From: Umezawaea tangerina
GTDB taxonomy: Bacteria; Actinomycetota; Actinomycetes; Mycobacteriales; Pseudonocardiaceae
DNA: 37,797 bases
Reading direction: 5' to 3'
Assembly: GCF_003002815.1 (NCBI RefSeq)
Contig: NZ_PVTF01000021.1
Span: 1-37,797, forward strand
Shown here: positions 24,203-30,385 of the stretch, piece by piece
Layout: the number at the start of each line of letters is the position of its first letter
Numbering within the stretch: the first letter of the stretch is position 1
Program-made: the position numbers and the translations under genes
Notes under the pieces: generated by a model
What the model saw: only the letters and a program-made list of their open reading frames with translations
Told to the model about the DNA's origin: nothing
Databases searched by the model: none

Positions 24203-24245
24203 GCACGGAGCGAGGCGGTCCCGTGGGAACCGCCTCGCTCCGTGC
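24203..24245 (-). terminator. Terminator of the lectin-hydrolase operon
   Basis: A perfect 17-bp stem (24203-24219 with 24229-24245) lies 8 bp beyond the stop of the gene ending at 24253. It is one of the strongest hairpins in the window. Confidence 0.9.
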
Positions 24246-24252
24246 TGCCGGA

Positions 24253-25749
24253 TCAGGAGGCGTTGCCGCCCCAGTCGTTCTGCTGCCCGCCTTCCTGCGG
24301 TGTCCACCACCAGTGGTAGAGCGTGTTGCGAGCCGAGGTCGCGAAGATCTGCTGCTGGTCCCCGTAGACGAACGCGACCGGGTCGCCGTAGGCCTGGCCG
24401 CCCCAGTCGGCGAAGGTGACCTGGCCGGTGGCCTGGTCCCACCACCAGTGGTACAGCGTGTTGTTCGGGCCCCGCGCGACCACGTGCTGCTGGTTGCCGA
24501 AGGAGTACCCGAACGGCGTCCCGACGAAGGTGCCGGGTGCGCCGGACCAGGTCACGGTGTGCACCTGGTGGTCGGTGGGGTCCCAGAACCAGTGGAACAG
24601 CTGGCCCGCGGCGTTCTTGGCGAAGATGTGCTGCTGTCCGTTCCAGACGAACGCGGTGGGGTCGCTGTAGGCCTGGCCGCCCCAGTCGGCGAAGGTGACC
24701 TGGCCGGTGGCCTGGTCCCACCACCAGTGGTACAGCGTGTTGTTCGGGCCCCGTGCCACCACGTGCTGCTGGTTCTTGTAGGCGAAGGACGACAGGCCGC
24801 CCACGAACGCGCCGGGTGCGCCGGACCAGGTCACCGTGTGCACCTGGAGGTCGGTGGGGTCCCAGAACCAGTGGAACAGCTGGCCCGCGGCGTTCTTGGC
24901 GAAGATGTGCTGCTGTCCGTTCCAGACGAACGCGGTGGGGTCGCCGTAGGCCTCGCCGCCCCAGTCCGCGAAGTGCAGCCCGGACCCGTCGTCGATCCAC
25001 CACCAGTGCAGCAGGGTGTTGTTCGGACCCCTGGCGAAGACGTGCTCCTGGTTGCCGTAGGCGAACCCGGTCGGCTCACCGACGACCGTGCCGCCCCAGG
25101 AGTCCGACCTGGTGCCCTCGCCGGGAATCCAGTACCAGTGGTGCAACGCGCCGTCGGTGCCGCGGGAGAAGATCAGCTGCTGGTCGCCCCACTTGAACGC
25201 CCTGGCGCCGCCCACGCCGTCGACGGTGCCGGAACCGGCCACCTCGGCCAGCAGCGACTGGGCCTTGGCCTGGGCGTCGGCGTAGGCCTGCGGGCAGCAG
25301 GAGCGCTGCACGTCCCAGGCGATCTGGGCGGCGGAGTACGCGGGGTGGTTGCGCTCGCTGTTGATGGCGCGGGTGAAGTACGACGTCGAGGCGTGCCGGA
25401 CGTCCATGATCTCCGCGGGCGTGCCCCACCCCTGGCTGGGGCGCTGCTGGAACACGCCGAGCGAGTCCCGGTCGCCGCAGGGCAGGTTGTTCATGTGCGA
25501 CTCGACCCAGCCGGTCTCGAACCCGGACAGCATGACCGTGTCCGAGACGCCCAGGTCGAGTCCGACCTGGTGCACGGTGGTGGTGACGTCGAGGTCGCGG
25601 TCGGGCGGGATCGACGGGCAGTTCGCCGGCATGACCACGCCCGCGGGCACCCGTGTGGTGTCGGGTTGCGCGCCGGCGGTCGGCGCGCCGAGCAGTACCG
25701 CGGTCGCCAGCAGGCTCGCCGCGACGGCGATCAGTCGTGTGGTTCTCAT
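24253..25749 (-). CDS. Secreted lysozyme/transglycosylase-like protein with seven-repeat lectin propeller
   Basis: This 498-residue exported protein has a signal peptide at 1-27 (AGA-Q). A lysozyme-like domain (about 40-170) contains SGFETGWVESHMNN and GDRDSLGVFQQRPSQGWG. Glu83 (or Glu78) is in the position of the catalytic glutamate of lytic transglycosylases, followed by the GxFQQ helix; four cysteines in this domain suggest disulfides. Residues 185-498 hold seven Trp-rich repeats of about 44 residues of the type QQ-(I/V)-FA-(R/K)-x(5)-L-x-H-W-W-W ending in DWGG. These resemble DUF346/PLL-type fucose-binding propellers, which fold as seven blades. The ATG at 25749 overlaps the stop of the upstream gene (ATGA), so translation is coupled. 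I infer a cell-wall hydrolase aimed by a sugar-binding domain. The sugar is unknown. Confidence 0.85.
   Translation of the reverse strand: MRTTRLIAVAASLLATAVLLGAPTAGAQPDTTRVPAGVVMPANCPSIPPDRDLDVTTTVHQVGLDLGVSDTVMLSGFETGWVESHMNNLPCGDRDSLGVFQQRPSQGWGTPAEIMDVRHASTSYFTRAINSERNHPAYSAAQIAWDVQRSCCPQAYADAQAKAQSLLAEVAGSGTVDGVGGARAFKWGDQQLIFSRGTDGALHHWYWIPGEGTRSDSWGGTVVGEPTGFAYGNQEHVFARGPNNTLLHWWWIDDGSGLHFADWGGEAYGDPTAFVWNGQQHIFAKNAAGQLFHWFWDPTDLQVHTVTWSGAPGAFVGGLSSFAYKNQQHVVARGPNNTLYHWWWDQATGQVTFADWGGQAYSDPTAFVWNGQQHIFAKNAAGQLFHWFWDPTDHQVHTVTWSGAPGTFVGTPFGYSFGNQQHVVARGPNNTLYHWWWDQATGQVTFADWGGQAYGDPVAFVYGDQQQIFATSARNTLYHWWWTPQEGGQQNDWGGNAS
24388..24945 (-). repeat. 279-bp tandem duplication encoding two-blade units
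   Basis: Units 24388-24666 and 24667-24945 are nearly identical apart from a block of about 45 bp, and a third diverged copy starts at 24946. The period of exactly 279 bp is 93 codons, i.e. two propeller repeats. Blades 3/5 and 4/6 of the lysozyme-like protein are therefore recent copies of each other. Confidence 0.92.
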
Positions 25750-27263
25750 CCGAGGGTCCCGCCCCAACTCGTGGTGTGCGTGCCGGTACCGTCGCTGATC
25801 CACCACCAGTGGAACAGCGAGTTGTCGGTGGTCTTGGCGAACACGTGCTGCTGGTTGTCGTAGGCGAACGCCGACGGGTCGTCGGTCAGCTGGCCGCCCC
25901 AGGAGTCGCGGTGGGTGCCCTCGCCGCTGATCCACCAGTAGTGTTGGAGGGTGCCGTCGGAGCCGCGGGCGAATACCAGCTGCTGGTCGCCCCACACCAT
26001 CGCCGCGGGCCTGCCGACGATCTGGCCGCCCCAGGAGTCGTGGTGCGTACCGGAGTCGGGCATCCACCAGTAGTGCTGCAACGTGCCGTCGGAGCCGCGG
26101 GCGAACACCAGCTGCTGGTCACCCCAGACCATCGCGGCCGGGTCCCCGCCGAGCGAGCCGCCCCACGAGTCGTAGTGCAGGCCGGTGCCGTCGTTGATCC
26201 ACCACCAGTGGTGCAGCTGGTTGTCGGAGCCGCGGGCGAAGATCAGCTGCTGGTTGCCGTAGGAGATCGCGGACGGCTTGCCCGCCAGCTCCCCGCCCCA
26301 GTCGGCGACGTGCAGGCCGTCCTGCGGGGTCCACCACCAGTGCTCCAGCGTGCCCGACCGGGAGCGGGCGAAGATGTGCTGCTGGTCGCCCCACACCACC
26401 GCGGTCGGGTCGGAGGTCAGTTCCCCGCCCCAGTCGGCGAAGTGCACGCCGCTGCCGTCGTCGATCCACCACCAGTGCTGGAGGGTGCCGTTGACGCCTC
26501 GGGCGAACACGTGCTGCTGGTTGCCGTAGACGAACCCGGTGGGCTGGCCCACGATCTGGCCGCCCCAGGAGTCGTGGCGCGTGCCCTCGCCGGGGATCCA
26601 CCAGTAGTGCTGCAACGTGCCGTCGGAGCCGCGGGCGAACGACAGCTGCTGGTCGTTGTACCGGTAGGAGGCCGAGCCGGGCAGCGGGTCGGGGGAGCTG
26701 TCGACGATGTTCTTGTAGCGCACCGGGGTGAAGGTGTTGGCGTAGGAGGCGGGCCAGGTGACCTCCTCGGCGAACTTGCCGTCCTCGGGTTCCTGGCGCA
26801 CCACCGGACTGGTGCGGGCGGCGTCCGCCCAGCGGATGAACAGCCCGATGTGCTGCACGGCGGAGTCGCGTCGCCAGAGCGCGTCGCCCGGCTTGAGGTC
26901 GCCCCGCGCGATGGTGTCGGTGACCTGGGTGATGGTGGCGGTGCTGTAGTCGCCCCCGCCGGGCAGCTTGGGCAGGTGCCAGGCCATGGAGACGTAGCCC
27001 GAGCAGTCCTGCCGGTAGGTGCCGTTGGCGTCGGTCCAGGAACGGGACTGGCTGTAGGGCACGTGCTCGTCGATCCAGTCCTGGGCCCGCGACAGGACCT
27101 CGTCCCTGGTGATCGCGCCGCCGACCGAGCTCGCCGGAGCCGCGGTCGCGGATGGCGCGCCCGCGCTCAGCCCGCTCACCAGGAGGCCCGCCGCGGTGAG
27201 CAGGCAGGCGAGTGCGCGTCTGCCACGCCCCCTGCGCCGTTGGATGGTTGGTGTCTGCGTCAT
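25746..27263 (-). CDS. Secreted NlpC/P60-like peptidase with seven-repeat lectin propeller
   Basis: This 505-residue exported protein has a signal peptide at about 1-42 (basic start, hydrophobic 18-40, ATAAPA). An NlpC/P60-like papain-fold domain (about 50-190) begins ITRDEVLSRAQDWIDEHVPYSQS and has the nucleophile in YRQDCSGYVSMAW (Cys87) and a histidine in VQHIGLFIRW (His138). Such domains cut peptidoglycan stem peptides. Residues 199-505 contain seven Trp-rich repeats of about 44 residues like those of the downstream protein. The start at 27263 was preferred over upstream in-frame options because the signal peptide begins there. Its stop overlaps the next start by 4 nt. Together the two proteins would attack both glycan and peptide bonds of a wall recognised by the propeller; that cooperation is inference. 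Confidence 0.87.
   Translation of the reverse strand: MTQTPTIQRRRGRGRRALACLLTAAGLLVSGLSAGAPSATAAPASSVGGAITRDEVLSRAQDWIDEHVPYSQSRSWTDANGTYRQDCSGYVSMAWHLPKLPGGGDYSTATITQVTDTIARGDLKPGDALWRRDSAVQHIGLFIRWADAARTSPVVRQEPEDGKFAEEVTWPASYANTFTPVRYKNIVDSSPDPLPGSASYRYNDQQLSFARGSDGTLQHYWWIPGEGTRHDSWGGQIVGQPTGFVYGNQQHVFARGVNGTLQHWWWIDDGSGVHFADWGGELTSDPTAVVWGDQQHIFARSRSGTLEHWWWTPQDGLHVADWGGELAGKPSAISYGNQQLIFARGSDNQLHHWWWINDGTGLHYDSWGGSLGGDPAAMVWGDQQLVFARGSDGTLQHYWWMPDSGTHHDSWGGQIVGRPAAMVWGDQQLVFARGSDGTLQHYWWISGEGTHRDSWGGQLTDDPSAFAYDNQQHVFAKTTDNSLFHWWWISDGTGTHTTSWGGTLG
25749..26669 (-). repeat. Seven propeller repeats (about 132 bp each)
   Basis: Seven successive repeats of 40-45 codons with the pattern QQ..FAR....LxHxWW....DSWGG. 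Repeats 5 and 6 (about 25960-26130) are nearly identical. The count equals a complete seven-bladed ring. Confidence 0.85.
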
Positions 27264-27330
27264 GGCGACAGCGTCGCCGGGCGCCCTTCCCGATTCCTGC
27301 GCGGTTTCTGCTCGCCCGCCGCAGGTTTCC

Positions 27331-27382: not shown

Positions 27383-30300
27383 GTGGACATCTGCGTCTTG
27401 GGGCCCGTGCAGGCCCGTCGGGACGGTGGGGAAGTACCGATCACGGGCCGCAAACCCAAGGCACTGCTGGCTGTGCTCGCGGTCGACGCGGGACGGGTCG
27501 TGTCGGCCGACGCGCTGATCTCCGCGCTGTGGGGCGACGACCTGCCCGCCGATCCGAGGGCCCGCCTGCACAGCCTGGTGTCCGCGGTCCGCACGGTGCT
27601 CGGCGGCGAGGCGGTGGCCCGTCGGTCCGCCGGTTACGTGCTGGTCGGCGACCGGGTGCGGGTCGACGCCCACGTGTTCGCCGAGCAGTCGTCCGCGGGC
27701 AGGCGGTTGCTGGGCGAGAACAGGTTCGGTCCCGCGGCCGACCTGCTGCGCGCCGCCCTGGACCTGTGGACCGGCCCCGCTCTGCTCGACGTGGACGGCG
27801 AGTGGGCCGAGGCCGAGCGCGCCCGCCTGGCGGAAGCGCGGTTGGCCGCCGTCGAGGACCTGACCGACGCGCGCCTGGCAATGGGGGAGGGCGCGGAGCT
27901 TGTCGCCGAGCTGACCGGGCTGGTCGCCGGGCACGCCGAACGGGAACGCCTGCGCGGCCTGCTGATGCTGGCGCTGCACCAGGCGGGCCGCACCGCCGAG
28001 GCGCTGCGCTGCTACGAGGAGGGGCGCACGCTCCTGCGCGACGAGCTGGGGGTCGATCCCGGCCCGGAGCTGCGGGCGGCGCACGCCAGGGTGCTGCGCG
28101 GCGAGGGGCGGCGACGCGTCGAACGGCGGCACGCCGTTCCGGTGCTCGCCCAGCTGCCACCGGACATCTCCGACTTCACCGGCCGCGAGGACGAGGTCGC
28201 GCGGCTGGCCGGGCACCTGCTCACCCGACAACCCGCCGTGGTGGTCGGCGCCATCGCGGGCAAGCCGGGATCGGGGAAGAGCTCGCTGGCCGTCCGGGTC
28301 GCGCACCTCGTGCGGGCGGACTTCCCCGGCGGCCAGCTGTACGTCAACCTGCACGGAGCCACCGCCGCGCCGCAGCAGCCCTCCGTTGTGCTGTCGCGGT
28401 TCCTGCACGCACTGGGCGTGTCGGAGGACGACGTTCCCGGTGGCGTCGAGGATCGGGCCGCGCTGTTCCGCTCCCTGCTCGCCGGGCGCCGCACGCTGGT
28501 CGTGCTCGACGACGCCGCCGACGAGGAGCAGGTGCGTCCGCTGCTGCCCGGCACCGAGGGCTGCGCGGTCCTGGTCACCGGTCGGCGGCGCCTCGGCGCG
28601 ATGGCGGGGGCCGTGCACGTGGACCTGCCCATGTTCGCCGACGAGGAGGCCCTGGCGCTGCTGGAGTCCCTGGCCGGCCGGGAACGCGTTGCGGCGCAAC
28701 GGGACCAGGCCGCGGACATCGTGCGGCTGTGCGGCTACCTGCCGCTGGCGGTGCGGATCGTCGGGGCCAAGCTGGCAGCGCGGCCGCGGTGGCCGATCGC
28801 CGAGCTGCGGGGTCGGTTGCGCGCGCAGCACCGCCTGCTCAACGAGCTGGTGCTGGGCGACCTCGCGGTTCGCGGCAGCCTGCTGCTCAGCTACGACGGG
28901 CTCGGCGAGCTGGAGCGGACCGCTTTGCGGCGACTGGGCCTGCTCGGGGTCACGGACTTCTCCGGCTGGCTGGTGGCCGCCCTGCTCGACGTGTCCCCGC
29001 AGGCCGCCGACGAGGTCCTCGAACGCCTCGTCGACGCCACCCTGGTGGACACCGCCGCCCCGGACGGCACCGGAGCGGTCCGCTACGCGCTGCACGACCT
29101 GGTCCGCGAGTTCTGCGGCGAGCAGGCGCAACGCGACGTCGAGCCCGAGGTGGTGGAGCGCTGCGCCCGGTACGCCGCCGCGCTCGTGGAGTACGCCACC
29201 AACCACATGCCCCGCGGGACCGCGCCGCAGCTGACCCGGCACCTGGGCCGGGTCGCGCTCGACGAGGGGGTCACCCGCAGGTTGCGGACCAACCCCACGG
29301 CCTGGTTGGACGCCGAGGGCGTCGTGCTGGTCGGCCTGGTCGAGCGGGCCTCGGAACTGGGCTTGGCCGCCCCGGCGGCGACGCTGGCCGCCACGTTGTC
29401 CTCCTCCGCCTTCACCGTGCGCGACCACTTCAGCCACTGGTGGCACGCGCACGCCACGGCGCTCGACGCCGTGCACCGCGCCGGGGACCGCTCCAGCGAG
29501 GCCTCCTTGCTCGTCGGGCTGGGCAACCTGCGCTTCGAGCAGGACCGGTTGGAGGAGGCGGTGGGCTACCTGGAGCGGGCGCGGGACGTCTACGCGGAGG
29601 TCGGCGACGACTACGGCCGGGCGGTCGCCCAGCTGAAGCTGTCCAGCGCCCAACGCGAATGGGGACGACTGCGGGTCACGCTCTCCACGTTGGAGGACCT
29701 GACGCCCGTGCTGAGCTCCCTGAGCGAGCCCCAGTTGACCGCGCGGGCGACGCACAACCGGGCGATGACCCTGATCGAGCTGGGCCACCTGCCCGCCGCC
29801 ATCGAGGAGTGCGGACGCGCCGTCGCCGCGTACCGCGACCTGGACGACCGCTTCGGCCAGGCCCTCGCCACCCGCTCGACCGGCATCGCCCACCGGGCCG
29901 CGGGCGAGCTCGACCACGCCGAACGCGCGTGCGAGTCGGCGCGCCGCACGCTCACCGAGATCGGCGACCAGCACATGCTCGCCTACGCCACCCAGTCGCT
30001 GGCCAAGGTGCTCATCCGCCAGGGACGCGGAGCCAGGGTCCTCGGCTGGCTCACCGACTGCCTGCGGACCTGCCACGAGTTCAAGGACGGCTTCGGACAG
30101 GCCCTGGTCCTGCGCACCCTCGGTGAGCGCGAGCTCGCCGTCGGCAGCCCGGAGGCCGCCCTGGGCCACTTCGACCGATCCCTGCAGTGGTGGACCGGGC
30201 TCGACCTGCCCCTGTGGCGGGCGCGCACGCTGCGGGACGTGTCCGGTGCGCTGGCCATGACCGGCGACGCGCCCGGCTCCCGCGCGGCCTGGGCGGAGGC

Positions 30301-30385
30301 GCTCGCGACGTTTGAGGCGCACGGGAGCCGGGAGGCAGGGGAGGGCAGGCTCGAACCGCGGTGGTGCCTGGGACGGGCGGGCTGA
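27383..30385 (+). CDS. AfsR/SARP-family regulator with NB-ARC and TPR domains
   Basis: This 1000-residue regulator has an N-terminal OmpR-type winged helix (about 1-92, MDICVLGPVQARRDGGEVPITGRK...LISALWG) and a bacterial transcriptional activator domain (about 97-242). A STAND NB-ARC ATPase (about 265-600) follows, with P-loop GKPGSGKSS (293-301) and Walker B-like LVVLDDAAD. A C-terminal tetratricopeptide array (about 700-980) completes the order, which is that of AfsR and similar pleiotropic activators of antibiotic and development genes. The GTG at 27383 follows a GGGGGAGGGGG site. It is divergent from the lectin-hydrolase operon with 119 bp between them, and is the obvious candidate to control that operon. 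The ligand sensed by the TPR part is unknown. Confidence 0.93.
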   Translation: MDICVLGPVQARRDGGEVPITGRKPKALLAVLAVDAGRVVSADALISALWGDDLPADPRARLHSLVSAVRTVLGGEAVARRSAGYVLVGDRVRVDAHVFAEQSSAGRRLLGENRFGPAADLLRAALDLWTGPALLDVDGEWAEAERARLAEARLAAVEDLTDARLAMGEGAELVAELTGLVAGHAERERLRGLLMLALHQAGRTAEALRCYEEGRTLLRDELGVDPGPELRAAHARVLRGEGRRRVERRHAVPVLAQLPPDISDFTGREDEVARLAGHLLTRQPAVVVGAIAGKPGSGKSSLAVRVAHLVRADFPGGQLYVNLHGATAAPQQPSVVLSRFLHALGVSEDDVPGGVEDRAALFRSLLAGRRTLVVLDDAADEEQVRPLLPGTEGCAVLVTGRRRLGAMAGAVHVDLPMFADEEALALLESLAGRERVAAQRDQAADIVRLCGYLPLAVRIVGAKLAARPRWPIAELRGRLRAQHRLLNELVLGDLAVRGSLLLSYDGLGELERTALRRLGLLGVTDFSGWLVAALLDVSPQAADEVLERLVDATLVDTAAPDGTGAVRYALHDLVREFCGEQAQRDVEPEVVERCARYAAALVEYATNHMPRGTAPQLTRHLGRVALDEGVTRRLRTNPTAWLDAEGVVLVGLVERASELGLAAPAATLAATLSSSAFTVRDHFSHWWHAHATALDAVHRAGDRSSEASLLVGLGNLRFEQDRLEEAVGYLERARDVYAEVGDDYGRAVAQLKLSSAQREWGRLRVTLSTLEDLTPVLSSLSEPQLTARATHNRAMTLIELGHLPAAIEECGRAVAAYRDLDDRFGQALATRSTGIAHRAAGELDHAERACESARRTLTEIGDQHMLAYATQSLAKVLIRQGRGARVLGWLTDCLRTCHEFKDGFGQALVLRTLGERELAVGSPEAALGHFDRSLQWWTGLDLPLWRARTLRDVSGALAMTGDAPGSRAAWAEALATFEAHGSREAGEGRLEPRWCLGRAG

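What the first reader, a model, noticed from the sequence alone, without database searches (positions are those of the whole stretch)
24253..27263. Coupled pair of secreted wall hydrolases, each fused to a seven-repeat lectin-like propeller
The two adjacent genes overlap by ATGA. One has an NlpC/P60-like domain (Cys87, His138), the other a lysozyme/transglycosylase-like domain (Glu83). Both then have exactly seven Trp-rich repeats of about 44 residues ending D(S/W)WGG. Seven repeats equal one closed propeller. Cutting both glycan strands and stem peptides with the same type of targeting domain, made at fixed ratio by translational coupling, would form a two-enzyme lysis or remodelling system. 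I do not recall this pair being described as a unit. The repeats are seen; the propeller fold and the cooperation are inference from DUF346/PLL-type proteins.
Basis: partly seen in the sequence, partly recalled or inferred. Interest (0 to 1): 0.78.

Follow-up and report, generated by a model that had tools for sequence, protein, structure and literature searches.

The report
Paired wall-cutting enzymes sharing one targeting module
Two adjacent genes of a soil actinomycete encode what look like secreted enzymes for cutting the two different parts of a bacterial cell wall, both ending in the same lectin-like module, and a number of relatives repeat this pattern with other enzymes and other modules, which suggests that matching modules send cooperating enzymes to one target.

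Summary
Two overlapping minus-strand genes (ATGA) encode an NlpC/P60-like protein (C87, H138) and a lysozyme-like protein (E83), each with seven DUF346 repeats. AlphaFold models match seven-bladed PLL/PHL lectins (Foldseek E 1e-18 to 1e-21). The lysozyme-like domain is nearest to GH184 muramidases.

The DUF346 pair is rare: 2 of 297 family genomes, the window's and Kutzneria viridogrisea. But it fits a wider pattern. Of 49 lysozyme-gene relatives with a long C-terminus, 29 have a neighbour within about 6 kb with the same C-terminal module, against 3 of 273 other genes. In 27 of the 29 loci a matched partner belongs to a peptide- or amide-cutting class; ten module clusters occur. From the NlpC side, 7 of 20 loci have a matched glycan cutter. 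Some modules evolve in concert, others do not. A SARP-type regulator flanks the pair in both genera.

Best reading: co-addressed glycan and peptide cutters for wall demolition, probably of other cells. Activity, ligand and target are untested. Seven open-access searches aimed at the pattern showed no description.

The parts
25746..27263 (-). gene A: probably secreted NlpC/P60-like enzyme with C-terminal seven-repeat DUF346 propeller, 505 aa
   Evidence: signal peptide by eye
26694..27137 (-). NlpC/P60-like catalytic domain of gene A (C87, H138)
25758..26678 (-). seven DUF346 blades of gene A (residues 196-502)
25746..25749 (-). ATGA stop/start overlap of the two genes
   Evidence: the same overlap in Kutzneria
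24253..25749 (-). gene B: probably secreted lysozyme-like (GH184-related) enzyme with C-terminal seven-repeat DUF346 propeller, 498 aa
   Evidence: signal peptide by eye
25231..25635 (-). lysozyme-like catalytic domain of gene B (E83)
24265..25215 (-). seven DUF346 blades of gene B
24203..24245 (-). perfect 20-bp hairpin after gene B, probable transcript end (inferred)
27383..30385 (+). divergent SARP-type regulator (BTAD, NB-ARC, TPR), kept beside the pair in Kutzneria (77% over 987 residues); below the NCBIfam AfsR cut-off
27289..27310 (-). candidate regulator site: two 11-bp direct repeats (8 of 11 identical here, 10 of 11 in Kutzneria at the same place), 25 nt before the start of gene A
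   Evidence: function inferred

Best explanation
The two genes are one instance of a module-matched wall-hydrolase cassette of actinomycetes. One protein cuts the peptidoglycan glycan strand (GH184-related muramidase-like head) and the other the stem peptide (NlpC/P60-like head). Both carry the same kind of C-terminal module, here a seven-bladed PLL-type propeller, so both are addressed to the same surface glycan and act on the same patch of wall, where cutting both polymer types is more destructive than cutting one. An ATGA overlap probably couples their translation, and a divergent SARP-type regulator probably controls the operon. Because the pair is rare and related cassettes can carry arabinan-degrading heads or lie on plasmids, the likeliest target is the wall of other bacteria (competition or feeding) rather than housekeeping of the producer's own wall. 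Shown: gene structure, predicted folds, kinship and recurrence. Inferred: activity, ligand, cooperation, regulation and target.
For: Fold: PLL/PHL lectins are the top Foldseek hits for both models. Recurrence: 29 of 49 long-C-terminus relatives of the lysozyme gene have a module-matched neighbour, against 3 of 273 control genes (matched partners were left out of the control). In 43 of 45 lysozyme/hydrolase neighbour pairs the modules fall in one cluster; shuffled loci gave a mean of 14.6 and a maximum of 29 in 20,000; 32 of 34 without the nine seed genes and the two DUF346 pairs, and 29 of 31 if three further NlpC genes that also fed the NlpC model (L081, L088, L094) are subtracted. Complementarity: 27 of 29 matched loci have a matched peptide or amide cutter (Amidase_2, M15-like, NlpC-like, M23, CHAP, VanY-like). 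Reciprocal: 7 of 20 NlpC loci have a matched glycan cutter, lysozyme-like in 5 and GH73 in 2 (one of the 7, L170, was known beforehand). The window's own genome has a second such cassette, NlpC + GH73, modules 71% identical. Three of five Streptomyces plasmid stretches opened carry NlpC + PF06737 transglycosylase with modules 97, 97 and 99.5% identical. Concerted evolution in two Streptomyces/Actinomadura groups. Accessory: 2 of 297 genomes, absent from the two congeners held. Regulator conserved with the pair.
Against: 20 of 49 long-C-terminus lysozyme genes have no matched neighbour within about 6 kb, including the two other DUF346 cases (L083, whose contig ends with the gene, and L096). 13 of 20 NlpC loci have no matched neighbour, three of them because they have no C-terminus of 60 residues to test. 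In the window the two modules are only about 50% identical, so they need not bind the same sugar. Of six paired NlpC-like proteins scanned, only L101 passes the Pfam NlpC/P60 cut-off. The M15-like class is named from a recalled motif. 14 of 29 matched loci share one FG-GAP module cluster, so the loci are not independent. No activity, secretion or binding data.
Confidence: 0.6

Rival explanations
1. Own-wall remodelling: the pair acts on the producer's wall, for example in hyphal lysis, branching or spore germination, much as RipA and RpfB do in mycobacteria (recalled).
For: Same enzyme classes as RipA/RpfB (recalled). Some relatives carry LGFP repeats, known from corynebacterial wall proteins (recalled). 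SARP-type regulators, which can be developmental (recalled), lie nearby.
Against: The DUF346 pair is in 2 of 297 family genomes and absent from the two congeners held, and similar cassettes lie on Streptomyces plasmids. Housekeeping remodelling should be more conserved.
Confidence: 0.25
2. The matched modules are assembly domains: the two proteins form a mixed oligomer through their propellers, so the match serves complex formation and not a common ligand.
For: PLL-family lectins occur as monomers, dimers or tetramers (passages of PMC12203525, and PMC6943638), and near-identical modules would allow mixed oligomers.
Against: The match also occurs with LGFP and FG-GAP-type modules, which I do not know as oligomerisers. 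The window propellers are only about 50% identical. No complex was predicted here.
Confidence: 0.15
3. No function in the match: a module-bearing gene was duplicated in tandem and one copy took another catalytic head; young duplicates still look alike.
For: Modules are often very similar within a genome. In several FG-GAP groups the modules are no more alike within a genome than between species, for example L110/L114: 85.5-87.6% within, 92.5-96.6% between.
Against: In L078/L082/L087 and L086/L091/L109 the modules are more alike within than between genomes although the heads are alike between species (72-95%), which needs repeated homogenisation. The window pair kept two complete seven-blade rings despite 50% divergence. 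Matched partners include a peptide or amide cutter in 27 of 29 loci.
Confidence: 0.12

Closest known systems
PLL/PHL seven-bladed lectins of Photorhabdus (DUF346)
   Same: Seven DUF346 repeats; Foldseek E 1e-18 to 1e-21 and target TM 0.80-0.86 to the PLL/PHL structures.
   Different: There the lectin stands alone; here it is the C-terminal half of two wall enzymes. Identity is only 19-28%; by sequence alone gene B finds PLL2 (2e-10) but gene A finds no lectin. Ligand unknown.
GH184 muramidases (KsGH184; PMC10394673, passages read)
   Same: Profile match E 1.6e-6 and 1.8e-6, over 71-75 positions including the DxDS(I/L)GxFQQR stretch.
   Different: The paper says that bacterial members lack a cell-wall-binding domain and does not discuss them. 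Here the domain carries a C-terminal propeller. The catalytic Glu lay outside the local alignment.
NlpC/P60 endopeptidases (MepS/Spr, CwlO)
   Same: DCSG...H core; profile E 7.7e-6 to Spr and 1.1e-5 to MepS.
   Different: Below the Pfam cut-off in the window protein, and with a propeller module.
RipA-RpfB of mycobacteria (recalled)
   Same: A glycan cutter and an NlpC peptide cutter acting together.
   Different: Those are reported to interact directly and share no C-terminal module (recalled). The plasmid NlpC + PF06737 cassettes look like the same enzyme classes but share a module.
CwlT-type bifunctional hydrolases and two-headed phage lysins (recalled)
   Same: Muramidase and NlpC/P60 heads combined with one targeting region.
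   Different: One polypeptide there; two genes with a module each here.

Membership tests
PLL-type DUF346 lectin | seven DUF346 repeats | tested here: met
   seven stretches in each protein
PLL-type DUF346 lectin | seven-bladed propeller fold | tested here: met
   AF2 models, mean pLDDT 83.7 and 81.9; Foldseek top hits are PLL/PHL structures over 329-350 columns; prediction, not experiment
PLL-type DUF346 lectin | binds fucosylated or O-methylated sugars | not testable with these tools
   needs binding assays; specificity of known members from passages of PMC12203525
NlpC/P60 | conserved Cys and His | tested here: met
   invariant in 12 rows of A4
NlpC/P60 | Pfam PF00877 above the curated cut-off | tested here: not met
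   14.4 bits against 23 for the window protein; of five paired relatives scanned only L101 passes, 29.5 bits
NlpC/P60 | profile kinship to solved members | tested here: met
   Spr/MepS E 7.7e-6 to 4.8e-4
NlpC/P60 | third catalytic residue in place | not tested
   no superposition was run
GH184 muramidase | sequence kinship | tested here: met
   profile E 1.6e-6 and 1.8e-6 to 8b2h and 8b2e
GH184 muramidase | catalytic Glu equivalent to Glu41 of KsGH184 | tested here: inconclusive
   E78 and E83 are invariant in 8 rows and lie in helix 70-87 of the model, but the alignment begins after them
GH184 muramidase | muramidase activity | not testable with these tools
   needs enzyme assay
RipA-RpfB-like interacting pair | direct binding of the two enzymes | not testable with these tools
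   no complex prediction was available
Polymorphic toxin system | pretoxin or HINT domain, variable C-terminal toxin | tested here: not met
   no such Pfam domain in the two window proteins; immunity genes were not searched for

The most novel reading that the evidence does not exclude
Actinomycetes have a modular, addressable wall-demolition system. A catalytic set that cuts complementary bonds (glycan cutters of at least three classes: lysozyme-like, GH73, PF06737; peptide or amide cutters of about six; sometimes arabinanase-like heads) is given one common, exchangeable C-terminal address module. Modules are swapped between target types and, in some lineages, homogenised across the set by gene conversion, so that the enzymes of one cassette keep the same address; SARP-type sensor-regulators often stand beside the set and may switch it on. 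The window's DUF346 pair is one address type of this code.
Probability: 0.45. Interest if true: 0.86.

Novelty: new variant of a known kind. Interest (0 to 1): 0.72.

Why it matters
If true, the modules are a readable address code: each cassette names a surface glycan and supplies the enzymes that open that wall. It would give matched pairs of glycan and peptide cutters to study on chosen bacterial walls, a way to assign ligands to orphan propeller and repeat modules such as DUF346, and a clear case of gene conversion keeping parts of different enzymes alike so that they work together. It also makes a concrete question testable: do complementary wall enzymes need a common address to synergise?

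Tried and rejected
Phage or plasmid origin of the window pair: no phage record covers 80% of gene B and no plasmid record 80% of gene A (0 of 128 and 0 of 27 matching records; the two other combinations were not searched). Unusual DUF346 abundance in the genome: only these 14 repeats. Conservation of the pair in the genus: absent from both congeners held. The MFS gene downstream as part of the unit: a hairpin lies between and it has no match in the 20-kb Kutzneria region. A single-linkage grouping of modules at E 1e-8 merged 86 of 94 modules and was replaced by a 45% identity, 70% coverage rule. The lysozyme tree has few columns and many open forks: 23 changes for 18 labels, least possible 17, so I claim no number of independent swaps. 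A structural second look (pdb_via) was not available. The 'M15-like' class rests on a recalled motif; neither Pfam, NCBIfam nor PDB sequences named it. SARP proximity is weak on the lysozyme side: 10 of 79 loci L072-L150, several by partial matches. Gene A alone finds no lectin by phmmer.

Circularity and selection: nine of the partner class models are single sequences of partners that had been found by their matched modules, and the NlpC model was built from genes of known pairs, so 43 of 45 is inflated; one search gives 32 of 34 without the nine seeds and the two DUF346 pairs, and subtracting L081, L088 and L094, whose duplicates fed the NlpC model, leaves 29 of 31. The control leaves the matched partners out. 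The 80 named loci are the best of 294. The NlpC loci L151-L170 were picked by me from the higher rows, not in strict order; L170 was known to be a pair. NlpC and lysozyme hits lie side by side in ten genomes of 297 (by coordinates); all ten feed the profile A4, the lists are cut and one search scored at most five candidates per genome outside the small ones, so this is neither independent nor complete. Two of the three control hits are one pair counted twice.

Literature: ten searches of the open-access library. Seven were aimed at the pattern (listings and starts of abstracts seen) and listed no paper that presents itself as describing module-matched hydrolase cassettes; three looked for GH184, D-arabinan enzymes and PLL lectins. 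Of five papers I saw passages. Subscription papers and preprints are not covered.

Full report
What is there. Two minus-strand genes, 25746-27263 and 24253-25749, overlap by ATGA. The upstream protein (505 aa) has an NlpC/P60-like domain with C87 and H138; the downstream one (498 aa) a lysozyme-like domain with E83. Both have N-terminal stretches that look like signal peptides (my reading, not computed) and both end in seven DUF346 repeats. A perfect 20-bp hairpin lies just behind the second gene.

Fold and families. AlphaFold models (mean pLDDT 83.7 and 81.9) match the Photorhabdus lectins PLL, PLL2-5 and PHL at the top of the PDB list with E from 1e-18 to 1e-21 and target-normalised TM 0.80-0.86. 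By sequence alone the second protein finds PLL2 at 2e-10; the first finds no lectin (best hit a ciliary protein at 0.036). A profile of the lysozyme-like domain finds the GH184 muramidases 8b2h and 8b2e at 1.6e-6 and 1.8e-6; in KsGH184 Glu41 is essential, and the authors state that bacterial members exist but lack a wall-binding domain (passages of PMC10394673). The alignment starts after the catalytic Glu, so E83 as catalyst rests on invariance (E78 is invariant too), a recalled 'ES' motif and its place in helix 70-87. The NlpC profile finds Spr/MepS at 7.7e-6 and 1.1e-5; of six paired NlpC-like proteins scanned, the window's included, only L101 passes the Pfam cut-off. A relative of the lysozyme-like domain lies in tape measure proteins of Streptomyces phages (38-42% identity in the seven annotated records at the top of the list), which fits a wall-cutting role.

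Distribution of the pair. It has the same gene order, the same ATGA overlap and, in divergent orientation, a relative of the window's SARP-type regulator (77% over 987 residues); no other called window gene of 100 aa or more had a match in the 20-kb Kutzneria region. The regulator has BTAD, NB-ARC and TPR domains but is below the NCBIfam cut-off for AfsR itself (541.7 of 1430 bits). The two congeners held lack the pair.

The wider pattern. A scan of named genomes with the lysozyme domain gave 294 relatives; the best 80 were kept. With the window, 77 of 81 loci had a complete lysozyme-like ORF, and 49 of these had at least 100 residues after the domain. Of the 49, 29 have a neighbour within the fetched 6 kb whose C-terminus matches (at least 40% identity over at least 60%). 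Of 273 other genes in the same loci, matched partners left out, 3 do; two of those three are the two members of one pair beside a contig-end lysozyme gene in Amycolatopsis arida. Of the 20 unmatched, ten form one Lentzea group, and in one (L083) the contig ends with the gene.

What the partners are. Pfam names Amidase_2, Peptidase_M23, CHAP, NlpC/P60, VanY (below cut-off), DUF2961, GH43 and DUF4185 heads. Matched partners by class: Amidase_2 12, M15-like 7 (a recalled motif; unnamed by the libraries), NlpC-like 6, DUF2961 5, M23 3, GH43 3, an unnamed class 3, DUF4185 2, CHAP 1, VanY 1; 27 of 29 loci hold a matched peptide or amide cutter, L076 and L127 do not. DUF2961 (GH172) and DUF4185 (GH183) include D-arabinan-cutting enzymes (passages of PMC10115798), so some cassettes could dismantle arabinogalactan as well as peptidoglycan. 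Modules fall into ten clusters among the 29 loci. The modules of the lysozyme gene and its neighbour agree in 43 of 45 pairs; shuffling loci gives a mean of 14.6 and a maximum of 29 in 20,000; without the dominant FG-GAP cluster 15 of 15 agree, mean 2.1, maximum 9. Without the seed genes it is 32 of 34, or 29 of 31 when three more NlpC seeds are subtracted. For 24 of 29 loci the own partner is the best match among all 45 partners; in five, including the Kutzneria pair, a partner from another locus wins. 40 of 43 matched pairs are on one strand.

The other side. Twenty NlpC-type loci from the family (L151-L170, picked by me from the higher-scoring matches) were fetched. Seven have a neighbour with a matching module: lysozyme-like heads in L152, L153, L162, L165 and L170 (the last known before), and GH73 glucosaminidase heads (PF01832, E 2e-31 and 1e-29) in L155 and L158. 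Thirteen have none; three of these (L154, L167, L168) have no C-terminus long enough to test. The window's own genome has a second cassette elsewhere, NlpC plus GH73, with modules 71% identical over 308 residues and a SARP-type gene upstream. Of five Streptomyces plasmid stretches opened, three carry NlpC plus a PF06737 transglycosylase with modules 96.8, 97.2 and 99.5% identical; the other two have NlpC-ricin genes beside tectonin proteins, one of these with HINT and RNase A domains, without a shared module.

Concerted evolution. In L078, L082 and L087 (Streptomyces) modules of one genome are 95.4-99.7% identical (four-fold sites 85-99%), but corresponding modules of different species 81.4-88.0% (four-fold sites 49-60%), while the heads are 85-95% alike between species. 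L086, L091 and L109 behave alike (87.6-96.0% within, 76-82% between). Other groups do not: L110/L114 are more alike between species than within, and L075/L080, L141/L143 and L123/L134 show little or no difference; modules on M23, DUF2961 and GH43 heads are 54-76% identical to the lysozyme's in the same genome. The window pair is not homogenised either: 52% within, 90-91% between window and Kutzneria. So homogenisation is seen in some lineages only; the window's propellers look like an old matched pair that has diverged.

Regulation. Across 107 loci searched with the first 480 residues of the regulator, hits lie in 9 of the 20 NlpC loci (one partial) and 10 of 79 lysozyme loci. The genome has 77 such matches in 10.68 Mb, about 0.1 per 14 kb. 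In ten further genomes, chosen because they hold cassette loci, its three best relatives are the Kutzneria gene, one about 0.9 kb from a lysozyme-domain hit in G157 and the one in L162. In the intergenic DNA two 11-bp direct repeats stand 25 nt before gene A, 10 of 11 identical in Kutzneria (7 of 5000 single-base shuffles reach this) and 8 of 11 in the window. Eleven-base spacing is typical of SARP sites (recalled), so this is a candidate operator, no more.

Mechanism and limits. The best-supported account is co-addressed complementary wall cutting. It rests on kinship, predicted folds and the repeated pairing. No activity, ligand or target was tested, the loci are related to each other, and the choice between foreign and own walls rests on patchy distribution, plasmid carriage and arabinanase-like companions in relatives. 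The rivals are own-wall remodelling, mixed oligomers and neutral duplication.

Novelty. The enzyme heads and modules are known kinds; cooperation of lysozyme-type and NlpC-type enzymes is known (RipA-RpfB, recalled). What seven aimed searches did not show is the matched, exchangeable module as a general rule. I therefore file it as a new variant of a known kind, with the addressed-cassette reading as the novel case.

Noticed in passing
G000:C5 (L067:6533-10589): A second module-matched cassette in the window's own genome: NlpC-like plus GH73 glucosaminidase, C-termini 71% identical over 308 residues, with a SARP-type regulator gene upstream.
   Followed up: partly
L171, L173, L174: Streptomyces plasmids carry NlpC-like plus PF06737 transglycosylase genes with 97-99.5% identical C-terminal modules; in L173 a third gene has an Exo_endo_phos head and FG-GAP repeats.
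   Followed up: partly
L172 and L175: NlpC-like genes with ricin-type lectin ends stand beside tectonin proteins; the one in L172 has HINT and bacterial RNase A domains.
   Followed up: no
phage records H1-H7: A relative of the lysozyme-like domain sits inside tape measure proteins of Streptomyces phages (38-42% identity).
   Followed up: no
L056, L058, L060: Other DUF346 seven-repeat proteins of the family have trypsin-like heads.
   Followed up: no
window:24265-25215 minus: Blades 3 and 5, and 4 and 6, of gene B are nearly identical, as after duplication of a two-blade unit.
   Followed up: no
L075, L076, L079, L080, L092, L099, L110, L150: FG-GAP cassettes combine lysozyme-like, Amidase_2, M23, DUF2961, GH43 or DUF4185 heads: possible arabinogalactan-peptidoglycan demolition sets.
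   Followed up: partly
L112, L125, L126, L130, L131, L137, L138, L142, L145, L146: A Lentzea group of lysozyme-like genes has a module of its own but no matched neighbour within about 6 kb.
   Followed up: no
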